From Glaciozyma antarctica PI12 (Eukaryota > Basidiomycota > Microbotryomycetes > Kriegeriales > Camptobasidiaceae), in the NCBI GenBank assembly GCA_002917775.1, contig KZ627161.1:1360467-1424466 (forward strand): a DNA stretch of 64,000 bases, given 5' to 3'. The notes below the pieces were generated by a model, which ran no database searches, was not told the origin of the DNA, and saw nothing but the letters and a program-made list of their open reading frames with translations. Made by a program: the position numbers and the translations under genes. This document shows positions 24,111 to 61,390 of this stretch, piece after piece (position 1 is the first letter of the stretch; every line of letters starts with the position of its first letter).

Positions 24111-25354
24111 ATGAATCCTCCCACCTCGTCCCCGCCCTCCTCTCAGAGCGCTCGTCCAGTGCAAGTCAAGCTGGTGCTCCTGGGTACGTCTCCGTCTCTC
24201 CTGCCTCTTGCAAGAGGCTTTAGGGAACTGGCAGAGAACTAGAAGGGCGGTAGCTAACTTTCTGGGTGGCGCAGGAGAGTCTGCCGTGGGCAAATCGTCC
24301 GTCGTGCTCCGGTTCTGCCAGAACGACTTTCAGGCCAACAAGGAGCCTACGATCGGTGCGTCGTTCCTCCTGAGCACCCTGGTGATCTCTACTGACGAGC
24401 CCTCGTGCGCACTGTGCAGGAGCTGCCTTCCTTACCCAGCGCTGTCGATTGGGTGCGTGGCGCAGGCCGAGGGTTGGGAATCGACGAGGAGGGACGCTGA
24501 TGGGTTGCGTCGTGCAGAGGACAAGGTTATCAAGTTCGAGATCTGGGATACGGCAGGACAGGAGCGGTTCAGGAGTTTGTCGCCCATGTACTACCGAAAC
24601 GCTCAGGCGGCGGTCGTGAGCACCCTTCGCAGTTGCTCCCTCTACGTTGCGCTAACGTTTTGCTACCAACTCAGGTCGTCTACGACGTGACCAAGGCGGC
24701 TTCTCTCGAGCAGGCCAAGACCTGGGTCAAGGAGTTGCAGCGACAGGCGAACCCCAAGTACGTCTCTCGCGCCCTGGTCAACCGCTCGCCCCACTCATCT
24801 TTCCTCCCACAGCATCGTCATCGCTCTAGCCGGTAACAAGGTCGACCTCGTACGCGCCTCGTCCGACTCGGAGCCCTCGACCCCGCCCGCCACCGACGAC
24901 GAAGCGGACGATGCGACGGCTACGCCTGAGGGAGAAGCCGAGGCGGCCGAGGAGGAGGAGAACGCTGGACCGAGTGAGAGTAGGAGGGAGGTGCCGAGGG
25001 AGGAGGCGGAGGCGTATGCGAAAGAGAGTGGGCTGCTGTTCTTCGAGACGAGCGCCAAGACGGGCGAGGGAGTCGTCGAGGTCTTCACTGAGATCGGTAC
25101 GTTGGTCCTTTCGCTCTCTTTTTATCCCCACCCTGCCGCTCTCGACACTTGTTCGTTGTTGCACGTTCGTTCGCTGACCTTGACTCCCCTTCGCAGCGAA
25201 GAAGATCCCCCTCGACCACATCCTTGCGTCGACCCGAGCTCCCGGCGGCGCTGCTGGACGTGGTGCTGGACGTGGAGGAGCCGCAGCTGGAGGTAGATCG
25301 CGCGTGGATTTGAACGACGCGGAGGGAGCGAAGACGGACGCGTGTGCGTGCTAG
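24111..25354 (+). CDS. VPS21: Rab5-family GTPase (Vps21/Ypt5) with acidic insert
   Basis: Early-endosome Rab GTPase controlling endocytic fusion. Exons splice to [20 protein letters not shown] (P-loop GESAVGKS), [20 protein letters not shown] (Rab5-type effector loop), [20 protein letters not shown] (switch II), [20 protein letters not shown] and GNKVDL with [11 protein letters not shown]. The C-terminus ends C-A-C before the stop at 25352-25354, a CxC-type geranylgeranylation site. Between GNKVDLV and the helix [15 protein letters not shown] lies an insert of about 45 residues rich in Asp, Glu, Ser and Ala (about 24853-24985). Human Rab5 has no insert of this size there. The Gly-rich tail [13 protein letters not shown] precedes the prenylation site. 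Family assignment is confident; the insert's role is unknown. Confidence 0.93.
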
Positions 25355-35651: not shown

Positions 35652-38075
35652 ATGTCGACACCCAGCGACCGCCTCCGCCAAGTCGCTCTCCAGCTCACGC
35701 CGGTACCGTCCAAGGTGCTGGCAACCACCTACCGCCCCCTCCTCCCCGCCGGCCTCAACCCCCAACAACACCCCACTCAACCCCATCACCTTCCTGCTGA
35801 AGGCGGCGTCCATCAGGCCCAACCATGTGGCGCTCCGCCATCCCACTCCAGCGCGGGGAGAGGGTCGGTCGTGGACGTATGCAGAGTGGTGAGGCGGAAG
35901 CGACGGGACGCGTGCGAACAAAAGGAGCTGACGGGCGTGCGGTTTGCAGGGCTACGAGGGTGTGCCAGCTAGCGTACGCGCTCAAGGCGAGGGGTATCAA
36001 GGCTGGAGACCGCGTGCTTGTATGCGGGCCTAACGTTCCCTTCGTCGCGGATGCACTTCAGGCGGTGGCTTCCGTTCAGGCGATCGTGGTCCCTATTAAC
36101 AGTGCGTTACGCTCTTCAGAGTTGCAGTCCCGAGCTCACTTTATTCTCGCGCAGCTCGTTTGACGGAGAACGAAGTCGCCTATCTCCTCGACAACTCCGG
36201 CGCAAGCCTCGTTCTCGTCGACACCGAGTTCGTCAACCTCGTTGCCTCCGCCAAAGTCCCCGTCGTTTCCTGCGACGATTCCGGCCTCGCGTCGGACCCG
36301 TACGAGCAGTTCCTCCTCGAGGGAGCCGAGTTCGATCGCAGGCACGGAGACCTGGGATGGGGAGGACTTGAGTTCCAGGCGGATGAGCACGCTACGTTTG
36401 CGATCTCTTGTGCGTCCTCAATTCGCTACATGAGAACTGAGGAGCGGAGCTAATGCCTAGGGCGCGCAGACACGAGCGGGACCACCTCGCGGCCCAAGGG
36501 AGTCGAATCTTCGTACCGAGGAACCTACTTGGCTGCGATTGCGAATGCGGTCGAGAGCGGACTCGGAGCCAAGTCGTCCTACCTCTGGATCTTGCCCATG
36601 GTGCGCACGTTTCTACTCGCGAAAGCGACAGAGCGAAGCTAACTCGCTGTCTTCGCTTCGCAGTTCCACTGCCTTGGATGGTGAGACGCCTTCCTTCGTT
36701 AGCTTCAGTGGAACCGGTACTGATGGTACTCGCAGGTGCTTCCCTTATGCCAATACGATGGCGATGTCGACTCAGATCTGCCTGCGAGGAGTCGGAGACT
36801 ACAGCGAAGTCTGGAAGGGATTCCTCGAGCGAGGCGTCACGCACTACAGCGGTGCTCCTACTGTGTGCGTCTTTTACCGTTCGTTTGCGAGCACTCGCTA
36901 ACCTTAGAGATCGCAGCCAACTCTCCATCGTCAGCCACCCTATGGCAACCAAGGTCAACGTTCAGACGACGATTGCCGGCGCTGCGCCCACTGCAGTGCT
37001 CATCGAGGGACTGGAGAAGCTCGGGATCAATGTTACGCACGTCTACGGACTCACGGAGACCTACGGACCCATGACTCGCACCGTGAGTGGCGCCATTGCT
37101 CTTTAGTTTGCGAAAGCTCACGCTGCGTCCAGTACTTCCCCGATCCCGCCTCGCCCGACTACTACACCCTCAAGGCGCGTCAAGGATCCGCTTTCCTTAC
37201 TGCCGACGATATTCGCGTCGTGCGCTTGATCCCTGAGGGAGAGGAGCTCAGCGTCAAGGAGGGCGACCTCCAGGAGGTTAGGTTCGATTCGAGCGAGGTG
37301 GGAGAGATCGTCATGCGAGGTGCGTCGTCCACTCCGCTTGCAACTGCTGCTTTCTAACATCTTTGTGCGCTCAGGAAACATCGTGATGAAGGGTGCGTTC
37401 TCGATTCCGCAGGAGGGAAAGGCGCAGGAGCTGACGAGGTCGCTACGCAGGATACTACAAGGACAAGGAGGCGACTGCCAAGGCGTTTGCTGGAGGGTAC
37501 TTTCACACTGGAGATCTCGCTGTTCGCTACCCCGACGGATCTTTCAACATCCAGGGTACGTCGTCTGCCCTCTCTCTCGAAGGGAAGGAGATTGATATCT
37601 CCTCGCAGATCGCTCCAAGGACCTCATCATCAGCGGCGGAGAGAACATTTCCTCCCTTTTCGTCGAGGCCGAGCTCACTACTCACGCCGACGTGCATGAG
37701 ATTGCAGTCGTGGCTCGGGCGCACGAGAAGGTACGTCTCTCGCTCTCCGGAACGAAGCTCGAGCTGACGACCGTGTTCGCAGTGGGGAGAACGTCCTCAT
37801 GCCTTTGTGGTCCTCCGCGATGGAGCCAAGTGGCATGGACGACACGCCGAGTTCTCGGCTGAGCTCAAGAAGCACGCGAAGAGCCGCATGCCGGGCTTCG
37901 CGGTTCCTGAATGGATCGAGATCGTCCCGGAGCTCGAGAAGACGAGCACTGGCAAGAGTACGTTCTCGCCGGTTCTTTCGTCGTGCGTTCGTTCGTTCGC
38001 TGACCCTGAGTTCGCTTCGCAGTTCAGAAGAAGAGTCTTCGGGAGAAGCTCAAGGAGTTGCATGGGAAGAAGTGA
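35652..38075 (+). CDS. AMP-binding acyl-CoA ligase (butyrate/AAE type)
   Basis: Adenylate-forming enzyme that makes acyl-CoA from a carboxylic acid, ATP and CoA. From ATG 35652 the start is MSTPSDRLRQVALQLTPVPS. The P-loop is YTSGTTSRPKGVESSYRGTY, followed by YLWILPMFHCLGWCFPYANT, typical of the plant AAE/butyrate-CoA ligase and bacterial relatives. Next come HVYGLTETYGPMTRT, then GEIVMRGNIVMKGYYKD, YFHTGDLAVRYPDGSFNIQD, RSKDLIISGGENISSLFVEA and the catalytic-lysine end LEKTSTGKIQKKSLREKL. It ends HGKK at 38073-38075, not a peroxisomal SKL. The first exon changes frame at a C5 run (35759-35763), between RPLLPAGLNP and NNTPLNPITFLLKAAS. The substrate chain length is not predictable from sequence alone. 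Confidence 0.87.
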
Positions 38076-47972: not shown

Positions 47973-48634
47973 CGACGGTAGTGACGGGGGAGATGACGGG
48001 AATGGTGTAAGCTAGCTAAGTGGTACGCGTGTGAGGGTGGAAGGAGCTGCTGCAGGATAGGGAGGCAAGTCAGCTGCTGCCAGCTGAGGACGAGGCTGAG
48101 GTGCGTACCTCTTCAAGCTCCACCAAGTCGGAGGGTGCCGGTAAACGTGGGCGTGGGGTGCGAGGTGTTTCGCTGGTCGTGGAGTGGTGGGAGTTAGGAA
48201 GGGGAGCGAGAAGAGAGCAAAGGCGCCGAGGTTGATTGAGTTGGATTGAGTCTTGTCGTTCGTTTCAGTGTCGTGTTCACTTCTTCTTGCACCTCTCAGC
48301 TTGGTACAGATACGCTGATAACGAGGAGGAAACAAGGCCTCTCACAGGCTGGTTCCTACACAGCTTGACAGCGAGGCTAACGAAGAACGCGCGTGTTGAA
48401 CATCTACTTTTCTCCTATTCTCCTTTCCTTCGAGCTACAGCTTCTCCAAGTCTGTACGAATCTTCTGCAGACTTTGGCAAACTTAGAAGAGCTGGCGCAG
48501 ATGGCCTGCCAGCCTGTTAACGCGAGAGGGGACGCTGAATAGGGGACAAAAGCTCGATCACACATTGCTCTTCCCAGTCTCACTTGTCCAGCGCTGTCGA
48601 CGACGACGACGAACCTTGAAGCGGCCAAACGTTT
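47973..48634. other. Intergenic between Ser/Thr-rich protein and duplicated locus copy A
   Basis: 662 bp. A splice-like GTACGC...CTGCAG pair on the minus strand at 48053-48110 suggests a leader intron of the membrane-protein gene. An open minus-strand stretch upstream of it (to 48335) has a hydrophobic run (LGAFALFSLPFLTPTTP) but no in-frame ATG, so I do not call it a signal peptide exon. Confidence 0.4.
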
Positions 48635-48796
48635 ATTTACAACAACATCCTTGCTCCCCAAAGCCAAAACGAAAAGAACTCGAGCGACACCGACACATCC
48701 TCCGCGATCGACTTCTCCCTCTTCATCCTCAACTTTTGCTTCCTCATCTCCTTCTTCGACGGAGACACCTAGAAGACACACTAGACGTATACCGCG

Positions 48797-49099
48797 NNNN
48801 NNNNNNNNNNNNNNNNNNNNNNNNNNNNNNNNNNNNNNNNNNNNNNNNNNNNNNNNNNNNNNNNNNNNNNNNNNNNNNNNNNNNNNNNNNNNNNNNNNNN
48901 NNNNNNNNNNNNNNNNNNNNNNNNNNNNNNNNNNNNNNNNNNNNNNNNNNNNNNNNNNNNNNNNNNNNNNNNNNNNNNNNNNNNNNNNNNNNNNNNNNNN
49001 NNNNNNNNNNNNNNNNNNNNNNNNNNNNNNNNNNNNNNNNNNNNNNNNNNNNNNNNNNNNNNNNNNNNNNNNNNNNNNNNNNNNNNNNNNNNNNGGNNN
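48797..49099. other. Assembly gap (N run) in copy A
   Basis: N from 48797 to 49094, then GG, then NNN to 49099. It falls between the leader and the C-terminal tail of copy A, where the start codon and main coding sequence should be. Confidence 0.99.
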
Positions 49100-49201
49100 T
49101 TGGTTTTGGGTGGTGTGGGTGGCGGCGGTGGGTGAAGCTAGAAGCTCAGGAGGAAGACCGGAGCGAGTGGATTGGGATGAAGAGAGAGAGAGCAGAAGGA
49201 G

Positions 49202-49208
49202 TTTTATA
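49202..49208 (-). promoter_or_regulatory. TATA box, copy A
   Basis: TATAAAA on the minus strand, directly upstream of a CT-rich start-like stretch (CTCCTTCTGCTCTCTCTCTC). The same pair occurs in copy B at equivalent spacing. Strong TATA boxes are not apparent at other promoters in the window. Confidence 0.65.
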
Positions 49209-49316
49209 CCCACCAGAGCCAGTCAAAATCACATCCGTCACATCTTACTCACGCCGAGAGATCCAGTCGAGAAGGATGAGGGAGAGACGGACGAGAGAGT
49301 GAGGCGAGGTGCGTGC

Positions 49317-49760
49317 GCGAGTAGTTCCTGAGTGATTGGAGCTGAGAGCGAAGGGGGAGCTGGCGCGGATCAAGCAGCCTGCGTAGACCGCAGAATACGC
49401 AGATCTGAGAGCTGGGGAGTGAGCTTCAAGCTTGGAAGAGGACGACCCAGCCGTTCGACCTGTTGTTGACGCGAGAACGGATTGGAGGCGACCACGCTCG
49501 TCGAGTAGCTCCAGCGGCCTATCGGAGGAGGGCCTTTCGGCTGCTCCAGCTCGCCTTCCTGTGTACTGGTGTACGGAGCGGAGGTGTGGAAGGAGGAAGA
49601 GAGGCGTGCTGCGTTTAGGTTCGCGTTCGCCTCAAGCCTCTCCGACTCCTACCTACCACACTGACCGCCTCTATCATAGACCACACTTGGACAACGTAAC
49701 CAAGCTACTTAGACCCAGTCAACTTCCCAACCAGGGCCAAGGCCATCAGAGGGAATCCGA
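49317..49760. other. Intergenic upstream of copy A and of the NIPA-like gene
   Basis: 444 bp between divergent units: copy A (minus) and the transporter ATG at 49761 (plus). It must hold two promoters. No further homology to the copy B upstream region was found beyond 49316. No coding sequence recognised. Confidence 0.4.
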
Positions 49761-52228
49761 ATGGGAGGGCCAGACGCCAGACGTCCGCACATCTCGGTGG
49801 CTGTAGGAGTACGTCTGCTCTATTGGATGTCTTTCTATGAGGGAAGAGCGGCGTTACGGCACGTGGGGCTGTTGGAGCTCGCAGGAAGCTGCTTGAGGCT
49901 CGAGGGGACGCGGGGTCAGGAGACGCGGGGAGGAGGGCACGATGGCACAGACGTACGGGCACGAGGAGCTAATGGACTGTTGCACTTCTTCTGCAGGTTG
50001 TCGTCGGGCTCCTCGCGAGCTTCGTGCAGTCACTAGGTACGCAGTCGCGCGGCGACCAACGTTGGGCGTGAACCGACCTCCTCTCCTCCACAGGCTTGAC
50101 GATCCAGCGCAAGAGTCACCTACAGAACGAGGCACTTCCTTCCTCCCTTCGTATCCGCGATCACCGACGACCGTTGTGGCTAGGAGGGTTCGCCATCTTC
50201 ATCTGCTCGAAGCTCGAAGGGTGAGCGGAGCTGGGTGAGCGTGTAGGGAGCACAGGAGCTGATTAGTCGCTGTGCTAGGCACTATATTCCAGATTGGAGC
50301 ATTGCCAATCGTGGTCCTAGGTCCGCTAGGAGCAGTCAGCCTTCTGTGAGTTGAGGCGCGACGCGACCTTTGAGCTGGAGCTGACGATTTGGACGCAGAT
50401 ACAACGCCTTCTTCGCACGTATAATCCTCGGAGACGAGTTCTCTGTGCACTTGGTGGCAGGTGAGTCGAAATGGCAGCGCGAGGAGGTTCAGGAGAGCTC
50501 ACCACTTGCATTCCAGGAACGGCGCTCATCGCAGGTGGCGCCGGCCTCATCGGAATTTTTGGAGGTGCAGCTCGCTCATCTGTCCTATTAAACTCTAGCT
50601 GACACCATTTTGGGCGCAGTCGTCCCTGAAGTCACGCACACTCTCGACGAGCTCGTCCGCCTCTACTCCCGCCCCGCTTTCATCGTCTACTTCTTCCCTC
50701 ACTATCCCTCTCACCTCACGATCCTCGTCACCTTCGCCCACTTTGCCGAATGGGCTTTCGAACGTCGACTCCGCAAGATGGATCCATACGACGACGGCGC
50801 CCCTCCCACCACCCCTCTCACTCCCCGCCCGAGCAACCTCCTTTGGCGAAAAGCCTCTCGAAGACTCTCATGCTCTCGACCCTCGCATCACCATCACTCG
50901 CATTCCGCACCATCGCTTCAGCCGTCGAGTCCGCAAGGTCGATATGGCGCAGCTGAAGACACGGTGACGAGGTACGGCACCGAGGCGTCGTCGCTGGTGT
51001 CTCGGAACCAGGCTAGGGGGGCCGTGCCAGAGGCATCCTCCACGACCAACTTCTTCGAATCCGACCCTGCAGTCAAAGCCTGGACGAGCGCGGACGACCC
51101 AACGGAGAGCATCGAGGTCAAGGAGCTGATGAGCTGCGCGGCGATGGAGCGCACGAGGGTCATCTTGGGAGTCGCGTATGGAGCCGCATCGGGGACGCTC
51201 AGCGGGCTGTGCCTGCTGTTTGCCAAGACGGGGATCGAGCTGCTCATTCTCACAGTCGTCGGGCAGAACCAGGTGCGTCGTTCGCTTGCCCGAGTGGCGA
51301 GCGGTCCGTATTGACTGGATTCGCCTGCGCAGTTTGGTCGATTCGAAGCGTGGCTCATCGTACTCGTGCTTCTAGTCGCTGCGGTCCTTCAAGTGCGTGC
51401 ATTCGTGTCCTCGAACTGGACGCACGCTAATCCTCTCGCACAGCTGTTCTACCTCAACCGCGCGCTTCGCCTCGTCGGTCCGACCCTCATCTGTCCTCTC
51501 GCCTTTTGTTTCTACAACCTCTCGTCCATCATCTCGGGCCTCATCTACTACGATCAGTGGGAGATGCTTTCGGCGCTCCAGTTCGGACTCGTCAGTCTCG
51601 GGACTGCGATCCTCCTCGCTGGCGTGTGGATCGTTTCGATCAAGGCGAACGGGAGCGGCGACAAGAAGATGAGCGCGTCGGCCAGCGTCGATGAGATGGA
51701 TCGGCTGTTGAGCGAGGAGCCGGAGAGCTTTGAGTCGGATTCGGAGGATTCGGATGAGGAGCCTGGTACGTCGTGCTGCGCCTTTACTCCTTCTTTTTTG
51801 ACGTGATGTATCCCACAGTTGAATGGCTCCCTCGAGGACTGACCATCGGGCTGGGAGCCATGTCGCCAGGCTTCGACATTCGCCCCGCCGGCCACCGACG
51901 TACTCCCTCCCAACCGCACACCTCCACCCCCCTACCCTCTTCCTCGACCTTCCCGTCGCACTCCAACGACGCCGAGCGACCTCTACTGCACGAACGCCAT
52001 TCCGACGAAGCGGAAGGCGAGGTCGCAGTGGGACAGCTCGCGCGAAGACGGCGCGAGCGACGCGGTTTCTCCATCTCGGGAGCGCTGTACGTTGGGAGGA
52101 GAACGGCGAGCGAGGTGGATAGTGCGCCGAGTAGCCCGTTGCTGCCTACGGCGGAGGAGGAGGTCCTGCCGGCCCCGTCGGCGTCGAGAAAGAAGGGACG
52201 ACGGTTTGGAGGGTCCTTGGGGGGATAG
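49761..52228 (+). CDS. NIPA-like (DUF803) membrane transporter
   Basis: Multi-pass membrane protein; animal NIPA members transport Mg2+. A GTACGT...CTGCAG intron (49809-49996) joins MGGPDARRPHISVAVG to VVVGLLASFVQSLGLTIQRK, making the first membrane segment. Then GGFAIFICSKLEGTIFQIGA, PIVVLGPLGAVSLLYNAFFA, VAGTALIAGGAGLIGIFG, then TLDELVRLYSRPAFIVYFFP and ILVTFAHFAEWAF. After a soluble loop of about 115 residues (50770-51110) come ILGVAYGAASGTLSGLCLLF, FEAWLIVLVLLVAAVLQLFY, PLAFCFYNLSSIISGLIYYD and LGTAILLAGVWIVSI. The C-terminus is acidic then Ser/Arg-rich, ending at 52226-52228. The long loop is larger than in most family members. Substrate is by family analogy only. Confidence 0.85.
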
Positions 52229-52399
52229 TCGTAATGCAGATTTGCCTTCTTTACAGCTTGTGATGGCTCCATTGTTCTTTAGTAAACGCAGCCGAATGCC
52301 AACGACTGGAAAAGTGCCAAGGGCGCAGAAAAGGCGGGGGGAACAAGGACAACTCCTGACCACGGGACTTCGCTGTCTGTCTTCCTCCCTCCTCTCCCG

Positions 52400-53455
52400 A
52401 TGCTTTGCCACCCCAGTCCTGCACGCCGCCTACTTCCAGGTGAAGGCATCATCCAGCTGGACCGCAGCGGCGAACGATCGTCCTTCTCCGACGTCCAGTA
52501 CAGCTACCCCATAAAGGTGCTGTGTCCGCAACGGCACTTTGGTATCGACGGACTCTCCTTCTGCTAGCTGCTACAGCTATGGCGGTGCGTGGCGACCTTC
52601 CTGTCTTACGTGGCGTAGCTCACTCGGCTCTACAGGTGGACTGGTGGCGGGGGATCGTGTCAAGCTCGAGGTCCGCGTTTGCGGAGGCAGCGGTCTCGTG
52701 ATGCTCACTCAAGGTGCGTAAGCGCTCTCATTACCCCGTTCCCAGCTCACAAGGCTCCCACCTCCCACCTAGGCTCGACGAAAGTCTACAAGACTCGCTC
52801 AGGCGGTCCCCCCTCCACCCCCATCGTCTCTCCCCCCGTCATCTCCGAAGTGACCCGCCAGCTCATGGCGTGCACCGTCGCCCCCTCCTCATCCCTATAC
52901 CTCCTCCCGGCCCCCGTCACCTGCTTCTCCCGCGCCAACTACTCGCAACAACAAACGTTCCACCTTGCGGCAACTTCCAACCTCGTCCTCCTCGATTGGT
53001 ACACCTCGGGTCGGATGGACATGGCGGGCGAAGGACGAGAGGAGTGGGTCTTCGAGAGGTATCGGAGCTCGAACGAGGTATTTATCGATGGGAGGCGCGT
53101 CGCGCGAGACGTGCTGTTGCTCGAGGACGACGGGACGGGGACGGGAGGGAAGACGTCGTATTATAATCGCATCGCGCCGTACTCGTGCTACGCGACGCTC
53201 ATCCTGGTGGGACCGGCATTGGCGCCGCTGTTGGAGCATCTGCGGACGGCGTTTGAGAGCATAACGCAGTACAAGCAGTCGAGGCCGTATTCGATGCTGT
53301 GGAGCTTTAGCGAGGTGGAGAAGGGCAAGGGAGGCGTGGCGAGGTGTGCGGGGGATTGTACCGAGTCGGTCAAGGAATGGGTGATACAAGTGTTGCAGGA
53401 TGGGGGGATCGAAGATTTGATAGGGAAAGATCTATGGAAGAACGCGTTTACATGA
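52400..53455 (+). CDS. ureD: Urease accessory protein UreD
   Basis: UreD/UreH helps insert nickel into apo-urease. The ATG at 52400 gives MLCHPSPARRLLPGEGIIQL, DRSGERSSFSDVQYSYPIK, then SPSASCYSYGGGLVAGDRVK, LEVRVCGGSGLVMLTQGSTK, YKTRSGGPPS and LYLLPAPVTCFSRANYSQQQ, all typical of UreD. The region FHLAATSNLVLLDWYTSGRM and EVFIDGRRVARDVLLLED continues the beta-helix. Stop at 53453-53455. The frame shifts by one base around 52531-52545, between YPIK and SPSASCYSYGG, where homology demands continuity; likely consensus error. It implies a functional urease in the organism, common in basidiomycete yeasts. Neighbours are unrelated. Confidence 0.88.
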
Positions 53456-53783
53456 GGGCTTGCGAAGACGCCTCTTTGGAGCTCTGCGTCGCTGGGTTCG
53501 CCTGCAAGGGAAGTGCTGGAAAGAATTCGAGAGGTTACTCCAACGTGAGCTAGATCTGAGCAGAGACGAGGATGCGAGAGCCAGAGCGAGAGCGAGGCAG
53601 CTGCTTCGCAAGGCGGGGCCCCCAAACGGAATGAGGGTTGAGGAGGGCGCAACGATGCGGTCGAACGCCCTCTCGAAGCTTTCCTGTGCAGCTGAAGTGG
53701 GTATAGCATTTCGGGGTATCTGGGAAAGAGCGGGGATATCTAGACGGGAGGTTGCGAGGCAAGAACGAGGTGGGGTGAGAGTG
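53456..53783. other. Convergent 3' interval between UreD and GID4
   Basis: 328 bp between two stop codons facing each other (53455 plus, 53784 minus). It should contain both 3' UTRs. No other feature recognised. Confidence 0.45.
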
Positions 53784-55319
53784 CTAGCAGAAGTCGAACG
53801 TGCCGAGAGAGAAGGGTGCGGATGATGGAGTGGGAGTGAGAACGAGTCGTTGGTATGGCGAGGAGACGGGGTCGACGTATAGTCCTTTGCGAATGGGTTA
53901 GCGAGTGAAGCCGGACGCGCGAGATGAAGACGCACCTTCCAGCTTGCCCGTCTGTCGGTCCATGCAAATTAGGTAGTGACCAGCTATGCTGAGAGTAGAT
54001 TCGGCGGCTGTTAATAGGCAGAGAAGCGTCAGCTAGCCGCTTCTCAAACCGCGCGCCGAAAAGGACTCACGAGTGACATTGATAAAGTCGAGCTCCTGCC
54101 ACGACATCAACATCCATCCCTCGGTCCTCTGCCTCAACCACTCGAGATCTCCCGACCGCACGCTCAGCTCCTCCTTCCCCAGCCCTTTGAAAGGCCCCAA
54201 CTGCGCCCAATAAAGCGAATCGTCCCGCTTCTTCGCTCCGACCTTGCGTGCGAAAAGCCCGTCGACGGCTGGGTTGAGAATATCGCCTTGGAAGTAGGTC
54301 GTCACGATCTGGGCCGATGCGTCGGGGACGCCGAGCGCGTGCATGAGGCCGTGAATGGTTTGGGTTTGGTGAGAGTACGAGTGGATAACGACCTTGGCAA
54401 GGGAATCGCACGTCAGCTTCACAACCCTCCCAGGTAGGTCTGAACAAGCGAACGCACCTGAACTCCCCAATGCTCGTCCTCCTCGACCGGCGCGTTGTCC
54501 TCCAATCTCAACCCCGCCTCCATCGACGCCTCCATCATCGCGTCCTCCTCCCTCCACTCCGCCGCTCTCCCCGCCAACCTCTCCATCGCATTCCGTACAT
54601 CCCTCAACTCCCGCGTCTCCTCCAGCATACCATCGCCTCGTCTCCGACCCGCTCATCCCCTCTGACCCGGCTTCCGCCTCTCTCCGCCACAGCACCTCCA
54701 CTCCAGCTCCAGCGACGTCAAACAACGAATGTGCACGATGCGTGGCGCTCGAGTGCGCGGACGTTCGTGGAGGGAGCTGAGAGAGGGCAGAGGCGAGTGG
54801 CTCGAGGTGGTCCGTGAAATGAGGGCCGTTGCGCGGGGGAGCGCGAGAGGCGGGAAAGCCGGAGGGGGAGCGGCGAGAGATGGGGACGAAGAGTTGGGAG
54901 CCGGTGAAGACGACGCCGGGGGAGAGGAAGGAGGATGGAGAGGTGGCGGAGGAGGGGTCGGAAGGGGACTGGGAGGGAGAGGGGGGCAGAGCGGTGGGGA
55001 GGAGAGGAGCTGGTGGGTTGAGGGGTTGGGTAGAGAGTAGTCCGGGCCAGTACTGGGCTAGGTACTGGTCCTCGTCGTCGCCCGAGAGACGCTCGTCCTC
55101 GTCGGCGAGAATGTCGTCCAGCTCGTCCTCCGGGTCCGAGTCGTCCGAGAAGCCAGCCTGGTACAGGTCGTCCCCGTCTTGTTCAGCGTCCTCCGAGTCC
55201 ACCTCGATGTCGTCTTCTTCGCCGGGGGCATTATTCATGAGGTGGAAGATCGCTTGTCGTCTGGCGTCGGCGACGATTTGTTCCGTGTCCCTGTCCCGAT
55301 TGTCACCTGTCGAAGGCAT
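53784..55319 (-). CDS. GID4: GID/CTLH ubiquitin-ligase substrate receptor, Vid24 family
   Basis: Gid4/Vid24 binds N-terminal proline degrons of gluconeogenic enzymes for the GID E3 ligase. ATG at 55319: MPSTGDNRDRDTEQIVADAR. A very acidic N-terminus follows. The Vid24 domain: SFLSPGVVFTGSQLF, then VVIHSYSHQTQTIHGLMHAL, IVTTYFQGDILNPAVDGLFA, YWAQLGPFKGLGKEELSVRS, DLEWLRQRTEGWMLMSWQEL and DFINVT. Introns lead to AESTLSIAGHYLICMDRQTG, KLEGLYVDPVSSPYQRLVLT and the stop at 53784-53786. The frame changes by one base near 54628-54640, between SGSETRR and GMLEETRELRD; the latter joins smoothly across an intron to HWGVQVVIHSYSH. Likely sequence error. Other basidiomycete paralogues exist, so orthology to yeast Gid4 is inferred. 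Confidence 0.8.
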
Positions 55320-55841
55320 CGTGGGGAGGACGCTGAAGCGTATGCGCGGAAGGACAGGTGTGGCGAGAGAGACGAGAGAAGCCGTGGAGAGGTAGAAGAG
55401 CAAGAAAGGTGAGTGTGGGAGCGTTCGGGCAGCCCGTCGCAAGGCCTGAGCGGCGACTCAGCTCTCTTCCCTCTTCCTCTCCAGTATTTCTCTCGGGTAC
55501 GACCCAAGAGAAGATCAGACCTGGCAGGAATGAGTGAGCTGACACTAAAGTAGAAGCGCCATTCTCGTCGTCAAGTCCTTGCGCCCACCTCCTCAGCCAT
55601 TCGCAGCCTCGTTGGCTGCCTTTCTCTGGCGTCTTTCGAGTGCGACTCCAACACGTTCAGCTTCTGCTCACAAAACTCCGACGAAAGAGAGAAAGAGCAG
55701 AACGCGAGTCGAACTCCTGTCTCTTGGAATATTTAATTTAATGGCCAGCCTTATTTCAAGTGAATAAATTCTGCTCCACTGTGAGGGCGTGGTCTCCCCC
55801 CTCCTCCCTCCTCAAGCTCTCTCCCTCCCGCCTTGCAAGAA
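55320..55841. promoter_or_regulatory. Bidirectional promoter interval between GID4 and TPD3
   Basis: 522 bp between divergent starts (55319 minus, 55842 plus). An AT-rich patch TATTTAATTTAATG (about 55731-55744) stands out in otherwise GC-rich DNA and could be a core promoter element for the plus-strand gene, about 100 bp upstream of its ATG. No coding sequence recognised. Confidence 0.4.
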
Positions 55842-57960
55842 ATGGCCAGCCAGCAGCAACAGAGCGACGATCCGAGTCTTCATCCCATCGCAATCCTCGG
55901 TCAGTCAAGACGACGACGAAGCTGACACGCGAAACAACCCCCCAGCTAACACTCTCCCAACCTCTCCCCCCCACTCCTCCCTCTCCCCTCGCAGTCGACG
56001 AGCTCAGGTCAGAAGACGTTACCCTCCGCCTGAACGCCATTCACCGCATTTCCACCATCTCCCTCGCCCTTGGCGCCGAACGAACCCGCGACGAACTACT
56101 CCCCTTCCTTCACGACTCTCTCGACGATGACGACGAGATCCTCCTCGCTTTGGCGGAGGAGCTAGGGCAGGGCTTTGTCGAGTACGTCGGAGGAGAGCAG
56201 TACGCTCACCTCATCCTCGTCGTCCTCGAGAGCCTCGCCGCGGTGGAGGAGACGCTCGTGCGTGAGAAGGCCGCCGACAGCATCACGAAAGTGTGCGCGT
56301 CCCTCTCCGAGGCTCAAATCGAGGAGTACTACCTCCCCCTCCTCAAGCAACTCTCGACCGGCGAGTGGTTCACCTCGAGGACCTCCGCTACCGCCCTCTA
56401 CGCCGCCGCCTACCCCAAGGCCTCCCCGACCACGCGCGCCGAGATGAGGAAGATGTTCACCGCCCTCTGCACCGACGACACGCCCATGGTTCGTCGCGCG
56501 GCCGCCAAGGAACTCGGTGCCTTCTCCAAGACGCTCGACCACGACGTCCTCCTGACCGAGCTCCGTCCCCGCGTTCCGGAAACTCGCCTCAGACGACCAG
56601 GACTCGGTGCGGTTACTCACCGTCGACGCCCTCATCGCCATTGCCGAAGCGCTCACCGACGAAGAGTGCAAGACGTACCTCGGCGCAACGATGAAGTCGA
56701 TGGTCGGGGACAAGAGTTGGAGGGTGCGCTACATGGTCGCGGACCACTTTGTCAAGCTGGCGGCGGCGGCGGGAGAGGATATCGTTAGGGAGGAGTTGGT
56801 CGTGGCATTCGTGGCGCTGTTGAAAGACAACGAAGCGGAAGTGAGGACTGCGGCGGCGGGTCAGATCCCAGGTGCGTTCGTGTTTCGCGCCCCGGCTGTT
56901 GTTCTCGAGGGAGGGACCAGGAGCTGATCGTGTGCTTGCCTACAGGATTCGCCAAGCTCGTCGACCGCGACATCATCCTCGCCCGCCTCATGCCCTGTAT
57001 TCGCGACCTCTCCACCGACACCTCCCAGCACGTCCGCGCAGCCCTTGGCACGCAGATCTCTGGCCTTGCTCCCCTCCTCGGCAAGGACTCGACGATTGAG
57101 CACCTCCTCCCCCTCTTCCTCCAACTCCTCAAGGACGAGTTCCCCGACGTTAGGCTCAATATCATCTCCAAGCTCGAGATGGTCAACGAAGGTGCGTTCG
57201 TTCCTACTTTCGCCCTCGCCGCAGGCTAACCTCCATTCCCGTCCCAGTTATCGGAATCGAACTCCTCTCCAAGGCCCTCCTCCCCGCCATCGTCGAGCTC
57301 GCCGAGGACAAGCAATGGCGCGTCCGACAAGCGATCATCGAGTACATCCCCCTCCTCGCCAAGCAGCTCGGCGTCCAGTTCTTCGACGACCAACTCGGCA
57401 ACCTCTGCATGGCTTGGCTCGGTGACCCCGTCTTCTCGATTCGCGAGGCGGCGACCGTCAACCTTCGCAAGCTCACCGAGGTCTTTGGCGTCGATTGGGC
57501 AAGGAGCGCCATCATTCCCAAGGTCCTTGCGATGGGCAGCAACCCCAACTACCTCTTCCGCATGACGACCATCTTTGCCATCACCGTGCGTTCGTTTCCG
57601 TCTTCATCGATCGCACCTCGCTGACCGGGTATCGCTTCACAGACCATGGCACCCGCCTTGGACGTCGACGTCGTCCGCTCCTCCGTCCTCGCCGTCGTCA
57701 TCGCCCTCGTCTCAGACCGCATCCCCAACATCCGATTCAACGTCGCGAAAGCGCTTGAAGTCCTCGCCGTCAGCCTCGGCTCTCAAGCAGGCGGCAAAGA
57801 GCTCGTCATCGAGGGAATCCTTCCTTCGCTCGAAAAGCTGCGCGGAGACACGGATCCGGACGTTAGGTTCTTTGCGGAGAAGGGAACGGTCACGGCGCAG
57901 GCGGTTGTGAGTGGGGAGGTGCAGGCGACGACGACGGAGGTGGTGATGGAGGATGCTTGA
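55842..57960 (+). CDS. TPD3: PP2A scaffold (A) subunit
   Basis: HEAT-repeat scaffold joining the PP2A catalytic and regulatory subunits; typically essential or nearly so in fungi. ATG at 55842: [19 protein letters not shown], then across the intron [80 protein letters not shown], then [96 protein letters not shown] and [20 protein letters not shown] follow; these match animal and fungal PP2A-A closely. Total near 590 residues, as expected. At 56564 an extra C after GAGCTC breaks the frame; without it GAGCTC would continue into [14 protein letters not shown] exactly as in homologues. Such a break in this gene is best explained by sequence error. Confidence 0.93.
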
Positions 57961-58243
57961 GGGGGTTTATTTTTTCTTCGAGACAGAGGAGGGGGGAGAG
58001 GCGACGCAGATATACTGAAGCTTTCGAATTAAGAACCGATGTACCCATTCCTCGGCGTCGTTGCGAAGGACGAAAAGCAGGGACCTCGCGGGGTCCGGCC
58101 GCTCCTTCAATCTCTACTCGAGCGATGCGACGAGATTCTGACAGCCTTGGGCTTTGCTACACGGGGGGGACGTCTCTCTCTCTTGCTCTTTCCGCACGCT
58201 CAAGGTCGTCGCTCCCTCCCTTCCCCCAAACACCACGCGCTCA

Positions 58244-58636
58244 ATGTCCCCCCCTCCCTCCCCTCCATCCTCCATCCTCTCCTTCCTCCGCTTCAAGCCC
58301 AAGAAGTCTCCTAAGCCCTCCTCTCCACTCCCATCCCACACGCTCTCCATCACCCTCGTTCCCACCAGCACCACCTACTCCCCCCTCTCCCCCTCCAGCG
58401 CCACCTCATCCCCTGCCTTCTCCTGCACCTATTCTCCGCCTTCGTACCACTCCACAAGCAGCCGCGGGTTTTTCCCGGCGTACAACTCGACAAACAGCCG
58501 CGGGAGCAGCGGGGAGGAGGACCTCATCTGGGACGACAAGTTGACGGCGGATGAGAGATGTAGGGCTTGGGATCGGGCGGAGCTGATTAGGGAGGATAGT
58601 AGGATTAGTGATGGGTTGCGAGGGATGGGGTTGTAG
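58244..58636 (+). CDS. Small hypothetical protein
   Basis: Unrecognised, about 130 residues. The ATG at 58244 gives MSPPPSPPSSILSFLRFKPK, then a Ser/Pro stretch and YHSTSSRGFFPAYNSTNSRG (two SRG copies). The acidic/helical end reads EEDLIWDDKLTADERCRAWD and LIREDSRISDGLRGMGL. The C-terminal third (WDDKLTADERCRAWDRAELI) has plausible amphipathic helix content and clean codon use, which supports translation. The start is the in-frame ATG before the low-complexity part; an upstream alternative (58154) is not ATG. No family known to me. Confidence 0.45.
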   Translation: MSPPPSPPSSILSFLRFKPKKSPKPSSPLPSHTLSITLVPTSTTYSPLSPSSATSSPAFSCTYSPPSYHSTSSRGFFPAYNSTNSRGSSGEEDLIWDDKLTADERCRAWDRAELIREDSRISDGLRGMGL

Positions 58637-58980
58637 AGGGGTGCGGAGGGATGTGAAGCGGTTGTTGATGCGTTTTTGAGCTGTTCTCGGATCGCTGAGC
58701 TGAGAGTGAAGAGTGAGAGTGAGGTCCTTGCGTGTTCTGAAAGAGCTCCACGCAAGAGATGGCGAGAGATCAAGGCGCCGCAGAAACGACCGGCCACAAA
58801 CTCGAACTCGCAGCAGGAGGTCCGGAGCTCCGGATACGACGGTTTGTTTTCAGATGCAGTCGCTTTCGACCTTCCCTTCTCAGCATAATCGTATCTCACG
58901 CTAGTTTGGATTCGAACGTGCGCCACCTCGTGTTCGCAGCCCTCAAACTCAGCTCAGGAGCTATTCGCGCTCAGGGCGCC
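58637..58980 (+). other. Intergenic upstream of copy B
   Basis: 344 bp between the small hypothetical gene and the start of homology to copy A. A tRNA-like box (GGATTCGAACGTGC, near 58908) is present but cannot be folded into a tRNA; see rejected items. No coding sequence recognised. Confidence 0.4.
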
Positions 58981-59082
58981 GCACGCACCTCGCCTCACTC
59001 TCTCGTCCGTCTCATCCTCATCGACCTGAACTCTCGGCGTGAGTAAGATTAAAATGATACGAATTTGACTTTGACTGGCTGT

Positions 59083-59090
59083 TATAAATA
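59083..59090 (+). promoter_or_regulatory. TATA box, copy B
   Basis: TATAAATA followed by the same CT-rich leader (CTCCTTCTGCTCTCTCTCTC) as in copy A. About 78 nt separate it from the N gap, with no ATG between, so the start codon lies in or after the gap. Confidence 0.65.
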
Positions 59091-59167
59091 AGCGACTCCT
59101 TCTGCTCTCTCTCTCCTCACCCCAACCCAATCGACCCGGTCCTGAGCTTATATCCTAACCCAACGCC

Positions 59168-59375
59168 NNNNNNNNNNNNNNNNNNNNNNNNNNNNNNNNN
59201 NNNNNNNNNNNNNNNNNNNNNNNNNNNNNNNNNNNNNNNNNNNNNNNNNNNNNNNNNNNNNNNNNNNNNNNNNNNNNNNNNNNNNNNNNNNNNNNNNNNN
59301 NNNNNNNNNNNNNNNNNNNNNNNNNNNNNNNNNNNNNNNNNNNNNNNNNNNNNNNNNNNNNNNNNNNNNNNNNNN
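59168..59375. other. Assembly gap (N run) in copy B
   Basis: 208 N at the same relative place as the gap in copy A. Two unrelated gaps would be unlikely to fall at equivalent positions, so a shared feature (repeat or collapsed paralogues) probably defeats assembly there. Confidence 0.99.
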
Positions 59376-59495
59376 GTCGTCGAGGTGTCGGCGTCGAAGA
59401 AGGAGACGAAGAAGGAAAAGATGAAGATAAAGATGAAGAAGAAGAAGTCGAAGGATGCGAGGATGTCGGAGGCGCTCAAGTCGTTTGGGCTTTGA
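59376..59495 (+). CDS. C-terminal part of an unidentified small Lys-rich protein (copy B), 5' part in the gap
   Basis: 39 codons follow the gap in an open frame to TGA at 59493-59495: it begins VVEVSASKKETKKEK, continues through a Met/Lys run (KMKIKMKKKKSK) and ends DARMSEALKSFGL. The frame and end are aligned with copy A. With the 208-nt gap, the whole protein would be only about 100 residues. The Lys-rich stretch could be nuclear/nucleolar or RNA-binding. No family can be named without the gap sequence. Confidence 0.5.
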   Translation, partial: VVEVSASKKETKKEKMKIKMKKKKSKDARMSEALKSFGL

Positions 59496-59747
59496 GAGGT
59501 GGGGATGGCTGTTGTTGTACAGCAGAGTTATACCGCAGTGAGAGACGTTTTTGAGAGAGGTTGTAGGGAGAGCGAGAGAAAGTGAGGCAGGGAGAAATTC
59601 GGTTCGCAGCTTCGCACTCTCGCTGCCCGTCGAGAACCTCGCTGGGGTAGCGACTGGTACTTGCAAAGCAGTGACAGAGCAGAGAAATATAAGATATGTC
59701 CAGCGGATCGTCTCGTACCCACCCAAATGAATTGCCAGCGACGACCC

Positions 59748-61390
59748 TCAAGCCTTCGCAGCCTGGAGCGTGTTGTAGTAGTGCACCAAGCTCTTCCTCT
59801 TCTCGATCCCCGCCTCCTCGACGGTAATGAGGACCCAATCGCGCTCAAGAAGGTAGTAAGGACCATGAAGGAACCCAAGTTTCTTCGCCTCGTCGTCTCC
59901 CTCGACCTTGGTGAGGTCCACAACGAGGGAGGACTTGACTCCGAAGACGGCGTCGCTGCAGCGGGATGAGCGCGGATTCGAAAGGAGTGAGAGGAGAGAC
60001 TCACGATTTGAGGTAAGGGTCTCCGGTGAGGTAGAGGGCGGTGGTGAGAGGCTCGAAGCCGAGGGCCTGCGAAGCGAGGTCAGGGCCGAGGAATGAAAAC
60101 GGCGAAGAAACGTGAACGCACGGCGAACTGCATGTGAAGGTGGGAAGGACGGAAAACATGGCGGTTAAGGTGGCGGAGGAGCTTTCCAACAGGTCCGTCG
60201 TTGGGCTGCGCGAACTGAGGTGAGCGGGGCTCCCAGCGGGATTGGAGAACGTACGATAGGGTACGGGCAAGGCTTGATCGCGCGGTAGCTGTAATCACCG
60301 TTCTCGTCGGTCGTCAAGCGACCACGGCAGTCTGGCTCGGTGCGACCCTCGTACTGAGTGTCGTAGAGACCGTCCTCGTCCGTCTCCCACGTCTCGATGG
60401 TGCAGCCTGCGATGGGCTTGCCCTGCAAGAGCGGCAATTCGTTAGAGGGGTTACCAGTGGAATCAAAAGGGTAGGTGTACCTAAAGAATTACAGCGTTAG
60501 AGCGTTCTCAGAGGAAGGAGAGAGGAGAGGGACGGACCTGAAGATCCGTAACGCGTCCCTTGACGAACATGTACTCTCCCTTGCCCTCGCTAGCAATAGA
60601 TCCACCGGCAGGAATCTGGGAGGGATAGATCAAGGAGAGGGAGGAGAGCGAATGCGAGGAGAGGGGAGCGAGCGAGGTCAGGACTTGCGAAGCAATTTGA
60701 AGGCAGGCCAAATCTGGGAGAGAAGCACGCACGTCATGAGAGTCCTCGGTAAAGAAAGGTCTGCAGAGCGTCCGATAAATTAGCTTCGCAAAAACGGGGG
60801 CGAGAAGAGGAAGCTCACCCGAGAACGGTCGCCTCAGTCGCATTAGAGTTGGCGGGCTTGGGGTGGTTCATCGTATCGACGAGAGCAGAGAGACCAAAGA
60901 TATCGGAAAGGAGAATGAACTCCTGGCGAATGTCGGAGCACATCTGTCCGGTCGCGGTGAGGAACTGAATCGCACCCCTGCTCAAGAAGAGGGAGGTCAG
61001 CTCCCGCTTTCCTGCGCGCAAGGGCGAAAGTACTTGCATCCACTCATCCGTAGTCAAGCTAACTTCGCGAGCAAAGTCGTGCAGGTGCGTAACGAGCTTC
61101 TCCATCACGAACTTGGTCCTGAGGGGCATGCCGCGGTGATCAACGGCCGAAAGAGCTCCCCCGACCCGTCCTGCTCACCTGTTGTCCTCACAGAGCGCGT
61201 TGATGGCAATCACGTTTGCCGTGAGCGTATCCACGCTCATGTCGACGAGATCCGGCAGGAGAGACTGCGAGAGAGTCAGCTTCGCGTGCAAGGCAGCTTC
61301 GACTGAGGAGCTCACTAGGTCGACGTTGGGAGCTCCACGGGCGATCGCATCGGCCACAGCCTTGCCAACACGAGGAGTATCGGAAGACAT
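59748..61390 (-). CDS. Intradiol ring-cleavage dioxygenase (probable hydroxyquinol 1,2-dioxygenase)
   Basis: Non-haem Fe(III) enzyme that opens catechol-type rings between the two hydroxyls. The ATG at 61390 gives MSSDTPRVGKAVADAIARGA; about ten small exons. The N-terminal helical domain has TKFVMEKLVTHLHDFAREVS and LTTDEWMQ, GAIQFLTATGQMCSDIRQEF, then ATEATVLGPFF. The metal ligands by family alignment are Tyr in DEDGLYDTQY, Tyr in CPYPIPNDGPVG, and two His in RPSHLHMQF. It ends LVHYYNTLQAAKA (stop 59748-59750). Catechol 1,2-dioxygenase is the alternative. I favour hydroxyquinol because the divergent neighbour 450 bp away is a maleylacetate reductase, which uses the product of that reaction. 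Confidence 0.88.

What the first reader, a model, noticed from the sequence alone, without database searches (positions are those of the whole stretch)
48635..59520. Two inverted copies of a small TATA-containing locus, both broken by N gaps at the same place
Copy A (48635-49316, minus) and copy B (58981-59520, plus) share promoter-like blocks, TATA box, CT-rich leader and a Lys-rich coding tail in identical order, although the rest of the 10 kb between them is unrelated. Both copies have their only N run between leader and tail, at the equivalent position. The visible parts suggest a strongly expressed gene of about 100-140 residues with a repetitive or paralogous core that collapses in assembly. 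I know of no fungal gene family with this tail. Copy A has a stop where B has Glu, so one copy may be decaying while the promoter persists. This is the best candidate here for something undescribed.
Basis: partly seen in the sequence, partly recalled or inferred. Interest (0 to 1): 0.78.

Follow-up and report, generated by a model that had tools for sequence, protein, structure and literature searches.

The report
Two diverged gapped gene copies, yeast-like
A fungus-like genome carries two old, inverted copies of one small gene-like locus whose middle is missing from the assembly in both; the duplication is real, but nothing visible shows that it is an unusual kind of gene.

Summary
Copy A (48635-49317, minus) and copy B (58980-59520, plus) share a 5' block (75.5% identical, E 2e-34) and a 3' tail (72%, E 8e-15) in the same order; these are the two strongest self-matches in 64 kb. 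All three N runs of the window lie inside the copies at roughly equivalent places, so the gaps probably share a cause. The divergence rules out one locus assembled twice.

The 5' block shows no coding signal and looks like a promoter plus leader. Both copies hold a TATA sequence, placed 6 nt differently. Part of B's 'Lys-rich tail' is a degenerate GAA tract. In the proposed frame 23 of 39 codons differ in meaning between copies and 1 differs silently, so protein conservation is not shown. The 'stop' in A may be a 3' splice site.

Most likely: a dispersed inverted pair of paralogous small Pol II genes with a conserved promoter, whose similar or repetitive cores broke the assembly. The gene cannot be named: its core is absent, no whole genome is held, and the two contig collections scanned hold prokaryotes and viruses.

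The parts
49284..49317 (-). Copy A: 34-nt block identical in copy B (upstream promoter-like block)
   Evidence: longest exact repeat of the window
49244..49260 (-). Copy A: CTCTCGGCGTGAGTAAG block
   Evidence: exact in A and B, no other place with up to 3 mismatches (15 of 100 shuffles also gave 2 or more matches at 3 mismatches)
49217..49227 (-). Copy A: TTTGACTGGCT block
   Evidence: exact in A and B, no other place with up to 1 mismatch (24 of 100 shuffles also gave 2 or more matches at 1 mismatch)
49202..49208 (-). Copy A: TATA sequence TATAAAA
   Evidence: read; starts 6 nt before the shared ACTCCTTCTGC block (12 nt in B); does not match TATAWAWR
49100..49202 (-). Copy A: CT-rich then CA-rich leader, no ATG visible
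48797..49099 (-). Copy A: gap (298 N, GG, 3 N), core missing
48638..48796 (-). Copy A: 3' tail; possible 3' splice site tgtgtcttctag|g
   Evidence: 48638-48777 is 72% identical to B tail; splice site read by eye
48632..48637 (-). Copy A: AATAAA just beyond the aligned tail, possible poly(A) signal, absent at the aligned place in B
   Evidence: read by eye
58980..59013 (+). Copy B: 34-nt block identical in copy A
59031..59047 (+). Copy B: CTCTCGGCGTGAGTAAG block
59070..59080 (+). Copy B: TTTGACTGGCT block
59083..59090 (+). Copy B: TATA sequence TATAAATA
   Evidence: the one match of TATAWAWR in the window; 0.42 expected, 32 of 100 shuffles had at least one
59095..59167 (+). Copy B: CT-rich leader, no ATG visible
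59168..59375 (+). Copy B: gap of 208 N, core missing
59376..59495 (+). Copy B: 3' tail, open reading of 39 codons to TGA; 59396-59447 is a degenerate GAA tract

Best explanation
An old dispersed inverted duplication of one small RNA polymerase II gene. Shown: homologous 5' and 3' blocks, 72-76% identical, in the same order around a missing core. Inferred: each copy starts from its TATA sequence, with the start a few tens of nt downstream in the CT-rich leader (general knowledge). The short coding part, roughly 70-115 codons by the gap lengths, lies mostly in the gap. That core is either nearly identical in the two copies (purifying selection or gene conversion) or repetitive like the adjoining GAA tract, and so broke a short-read assembly at the same place twice. 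The visible tail is the last, poorly constrained low-complexity part of the reading frame or the 3' untranslated region.
For: Two strong self-matches only, far above shuffles. All three N runs of the window lie in the two copies at roughly equivalent places. A TATA sequence is in both copies although not in the same alignment columns, which fits selection for a TATA there. The 5' block has no reading-frame signal: substitutions by codon position are near even (8, 10 and 13 in some order) in all 6 frames, and 5 of 6 frames contain stops in both copies. Exact repeats up to 34 nt in the flanks were assembled, so the lost cores probably hold longer exact or repetitive stretches. The first 10 codons of the tail next to the gap have 26 of 30 bases identical, above the tail's 72%.
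Against: No start codon, proven intron or full reading frame is visible in either copy. On the 5' side identity does not rise towards the gap: the last 40 alignment columns have 27 identical, 6 gap columns included. There is no transcript evidence. Gap lengths differ (303 and 208), which a near-identical core does not predict unless they are poor estimates. In the proposed tail frame 23 codons differ in meaning and 1 silently. The TATA motif alone is not beyond chance: 32 of 100 shuffles of the window had at least one TATAWAWR.
Confidence: 0.6

Rival explanations
1. The missing core is a structured noncoding RNA (for example a spliceosomal or nucleolar RNA kept in two copies), transcribed by Pol II from the TATA promoter.
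For: Size of the gaps (208-346 nt), no visible start codon, weak protein signal in the tail, shared promoter-like blocks. In relaxed scans the tails of both copies give a weak match to the same C/D snoRNA model, RF01306, though the tails are homologous and so not independent.
Against: No Rfam family reaches its gathering score in the window. The relaxed matches (5 in copy A's region, 1 in copy B's) have E 0.78 to 5.9 and 12.7 to 15.9 bits against cutoffs of 35 to 60. The core itself is N, so this is a weak test. The CT-rich leader looks like that of an mRNA.
Confidence: 0.15
2. The copies are remnants of a mobile or repeated element with further copies in the genome, and the repeat itself broke the assembly.
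For: Inverted dispersed copies, unrelated flanks, gaps in both.
Against: Only two copies in 64 kb; a gene-like order of TATA, leader and tail. Copy number in the rest of the genome could not be tested.
Confidence: 0.12
3. One locus assembled twice.
For: Both copies are gapped at about the same place.
Against: 24-28% divergence, indels and unrelated flanks.
Confidence: 0.01
4. The gene lies on the opposite strand (an antisense frame is open in the 5' block of copy A, and antisense frames are open in the tails).
For: In the 5' block one antisense frame has 0 stops in A, and all three indels are 6 nt. In the tail, antisense frame 0 has no stop in either copy and substitutions 5, 11, 15 over codon positions 1, 2, 3, which is a coding-like order.
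Against: In the 5' block B has a stop in that frame, substitutions are 8, 13, 10 over positions 1, 2, 3, and GC3 is 0.51. In the tail frame GC3 is 0.36. The frames with NIPA, UreD and HEAT matches have GC3 of 0.73, 0.74 and 0.74.
Confidence: 0.05

Closest known systems
Pairs of diverged paralogous small genes with a retained promoter (a general kind, from general knowledge)
   Same: Two diverged copies, same order of promoter-like block, leader and tail, gap between.
   Different: The gene itself cannot be named; the core is missing.
Core histone genes of fungi (considered from general knowledge)
   Same: Short, often two copies, conserved promoter blocks, very similar coding parts.
   Different: Fungal histone genes usually lie in divergent H2A-H2B or H3-H4 pairs (recalled). 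The nearest gene identified upstream of copy A is NIPA-like, about 2 kb away, and next upstream of copy B is an unnamed ORF in the same direction; the stretch 49.4-50.6 kb was not scanned.

Membership tests
Paralogous gene pair | Homology of both ends in the same order, beyond chance | tested here: met
Paralogous gene pair | Homologous protein-coding core | not testable with these tools
   core is N in both copies
   of 39 codons 15 same, 1 synonymous, 23 different in meaning, one of these a stop in A
Known protein family | Profile or sequence match of the 39-residue tail | tested here: not met
   0 Pfam families at E up to 1, 0 PDB sequences at E up to 10; the core is hidden by N
Known RNA family | Rfam match at the gathering score | tested here: not met
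   0 matches in the window; the core is hidden by N
Fungal core histone gene pair | Divergent partner histone gene | tested here: inconclusive
   15 frames scanned with Pfam, 10 and 5, gave no histone; the upstream stretch of copy A was not scanned

The most novel reading that the evidence does not exclude
The copies encode a lineage-specific small basic protein whose conserved core is kept by gene conversion between the inverted copies, while its Lys-rich end evolves fast and its promoter is conserved.
Probability: 0.1. Interest if true: 0.35.

Novelty: new member of a known kind. Interest (0 to 1): 0.15.

Why it matters
Mostly as a caution: cores lost at the same place in two paralogs are an expected failure of short-read assembly and can hide small genes from annotation. 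If the core proved to be an unknown conserved small protein it would deserve follow-up.

Tried and rejected
Assembly duplicate: rejected by 24-28% divergence. Coding 5' block: rejected by stops and even substitution phases. Antisense gene: disfavoured by GC3, although the substitution order in one antisense tail frame is coding-like. A reading of the tail in another sense frame ends in an Arg-rich stretch (15 codons visible in B, 16 in A); too short to judge. A scan of the window, starts sampled every 7 nt, for 39-codon open stretches with GC3 of at least 0.80 and mean GC at positions 1 and 2 of at most 0.37 gave 2 of 8790, both antisense to these tails. The sense frame of B would pass the same limits but its one possible start was not sampled, so the scan favours neither strand; a triplet tract gives such a pattern by itself. 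Comparison of flanking ORFs as proteins, low-complexity filter on (129 against 107), found no larger duplicated block: the matches at E 4e-16, 1e-6 and 1e-5 all lie in the same 5' block and every other match printed had E above 0.06. Collection scans: the 27-nt block had 0 exact matches in prokaryote genomes and 0 in viral contigs. A 17-nt block had 1 viral match, about what chance would give by my own rough arithmetic; it was not followed. Phage, plasmid and E. coli collections were not searched. Three literature searches, of which I saw listings and abstract starts only, listed no paper whose title or abstract start points to this locus; no paper was opened, and I make no claim about what is or is not in print.

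Full report
The window is eukaryotic and probably fungal. Near the finding lie matches to a NIPA-type magnesium transporter, a UreD urease accessory protein, a Vid24-type protein and the PP2A scaffold subunit, with an iron alcohol dehydrogenase further on. No whole genome is held for the window, and the two contig collections scanned hold prokaryotes and viruses.

In a self-comparison of the window the two best off-diagonal matches are the 5' block (200 columns, 75.5%, E 2e-34) and the tail (144 columns, 72%, E 8e-15), both inverted, in the same order in each copy. Shuffle and window controls leave no doubt about chance. The longest exact repeat of the window is a 34-nt piece of the 5' block. 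The next blocks, CTCTCGGCGTGAGTAAG and TTTGACTGGCT, are exact in both copies and occur nowhere else in the window within 3 and 1 mismatches; at those mismatch levels 15 and 24 of 100 shuffles also gave two or more matches, so each block alone proves little.

All three N runs in 64 kb lie in the two copies. If two gaps fell at random, the second would land within about 50 nt of the equivalent place roughly once in 640 times (my arithmetic), so a common cause is likely. Exact repeats of up to 34 nt in the flanks did not stop the assembly, so the missing cores probably contain longer identical stretches or an internal repeat. In copy B, 59396-59447 is itself a degenerate GAA tract, 17.3 units at 67% matching, score 48, found only with the threshold lowered to 30; no GAA tract was called in copy A's tail, where a 15-nt unit of 2.5 copies was. 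On near-identical cores the edges disagree: next to the gap the tail has 26 of 30 bases identical, while the last 40 columns before the 5' gap edge have 27 of 40. The stated gap lengths also differ.

The 5' block behaves like a promoter and leader. In six frames the substitutions are spread nearly evenly over codon positions. Both copies carry a TATA sequence just upstream of an identical 21-nt CT-rich block, but the TATA starts 6 nt from that block in A and 12 nt in B (read). That fits selection for the element rather than mere common descent, as an inference; copy A's version does not match TATAWAWR, and a single match in the window is not beyond chance. The TGAGTAA inside the conserved block resembles an AP-1 or Gcn4 type site; that is recalled and untested.

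In the proposed frame, G+C at the three positions is 0.36, 0.29 and 0.86 over both copies, which looks like coding, but a GAA tract gives the same pattern by itself. Between copies, 15 of 39 codons are the same, 1 differs silently and 23 differ in meaning, the TAG included; substitutions fall 15, 11 and 5 on positions 1, 2 and 3. A protein under constraint would show the reverse. The tail is therefore either a fast-changing low-complexity end or untranslated. The tail peptide matches no Pfam family and no PDB sequence. The in-frame TAG in copy A sits in tgtgtcttctag|g, a fair 3' splice site by eye, so 'decay' does not follow.

Other readings. An antisense gene has one point in its favour, a coding-like order of substitutions in one antisense tail frame (5, 11, 15), but GC3 there is 0.36 against 0.73-0.74 in three frames with Pfam matches. 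For a structured RNA, both tails weakly match the same snoRNA model, far below its cutoff (13.5 and 15.2 bits against 50).

Verdict: most likely an ordinary, old, inverted pair of small gene-like loci with a conserved promoter and an assembly gap in each core. The identity of the gene is not recoverable from this sequence. Structured RNA and a repeat element remain possible at lower odds.

Noticed in passing
58244-58636 (+): A Ser/Pro-rich open reading frame of 130 codons from an ATG, just upstream of copy B; the 129 residues scanned had no Pfam match at E up to 1. Possibly a lineage-specific gene.
   Followed up: partly
25164-25205 and 37990-38031: A 42-bp direct match at 83% identity, the only other self-match of the window below E 1e-3.
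   Followed up: no
59748-60500 (-): Open frames downstream of copy B look by eye like an intradiol (catechol-type) dioxygenase broken by introns; the one frame scanned had no Pfam match above cutoff.
   Followed up: no
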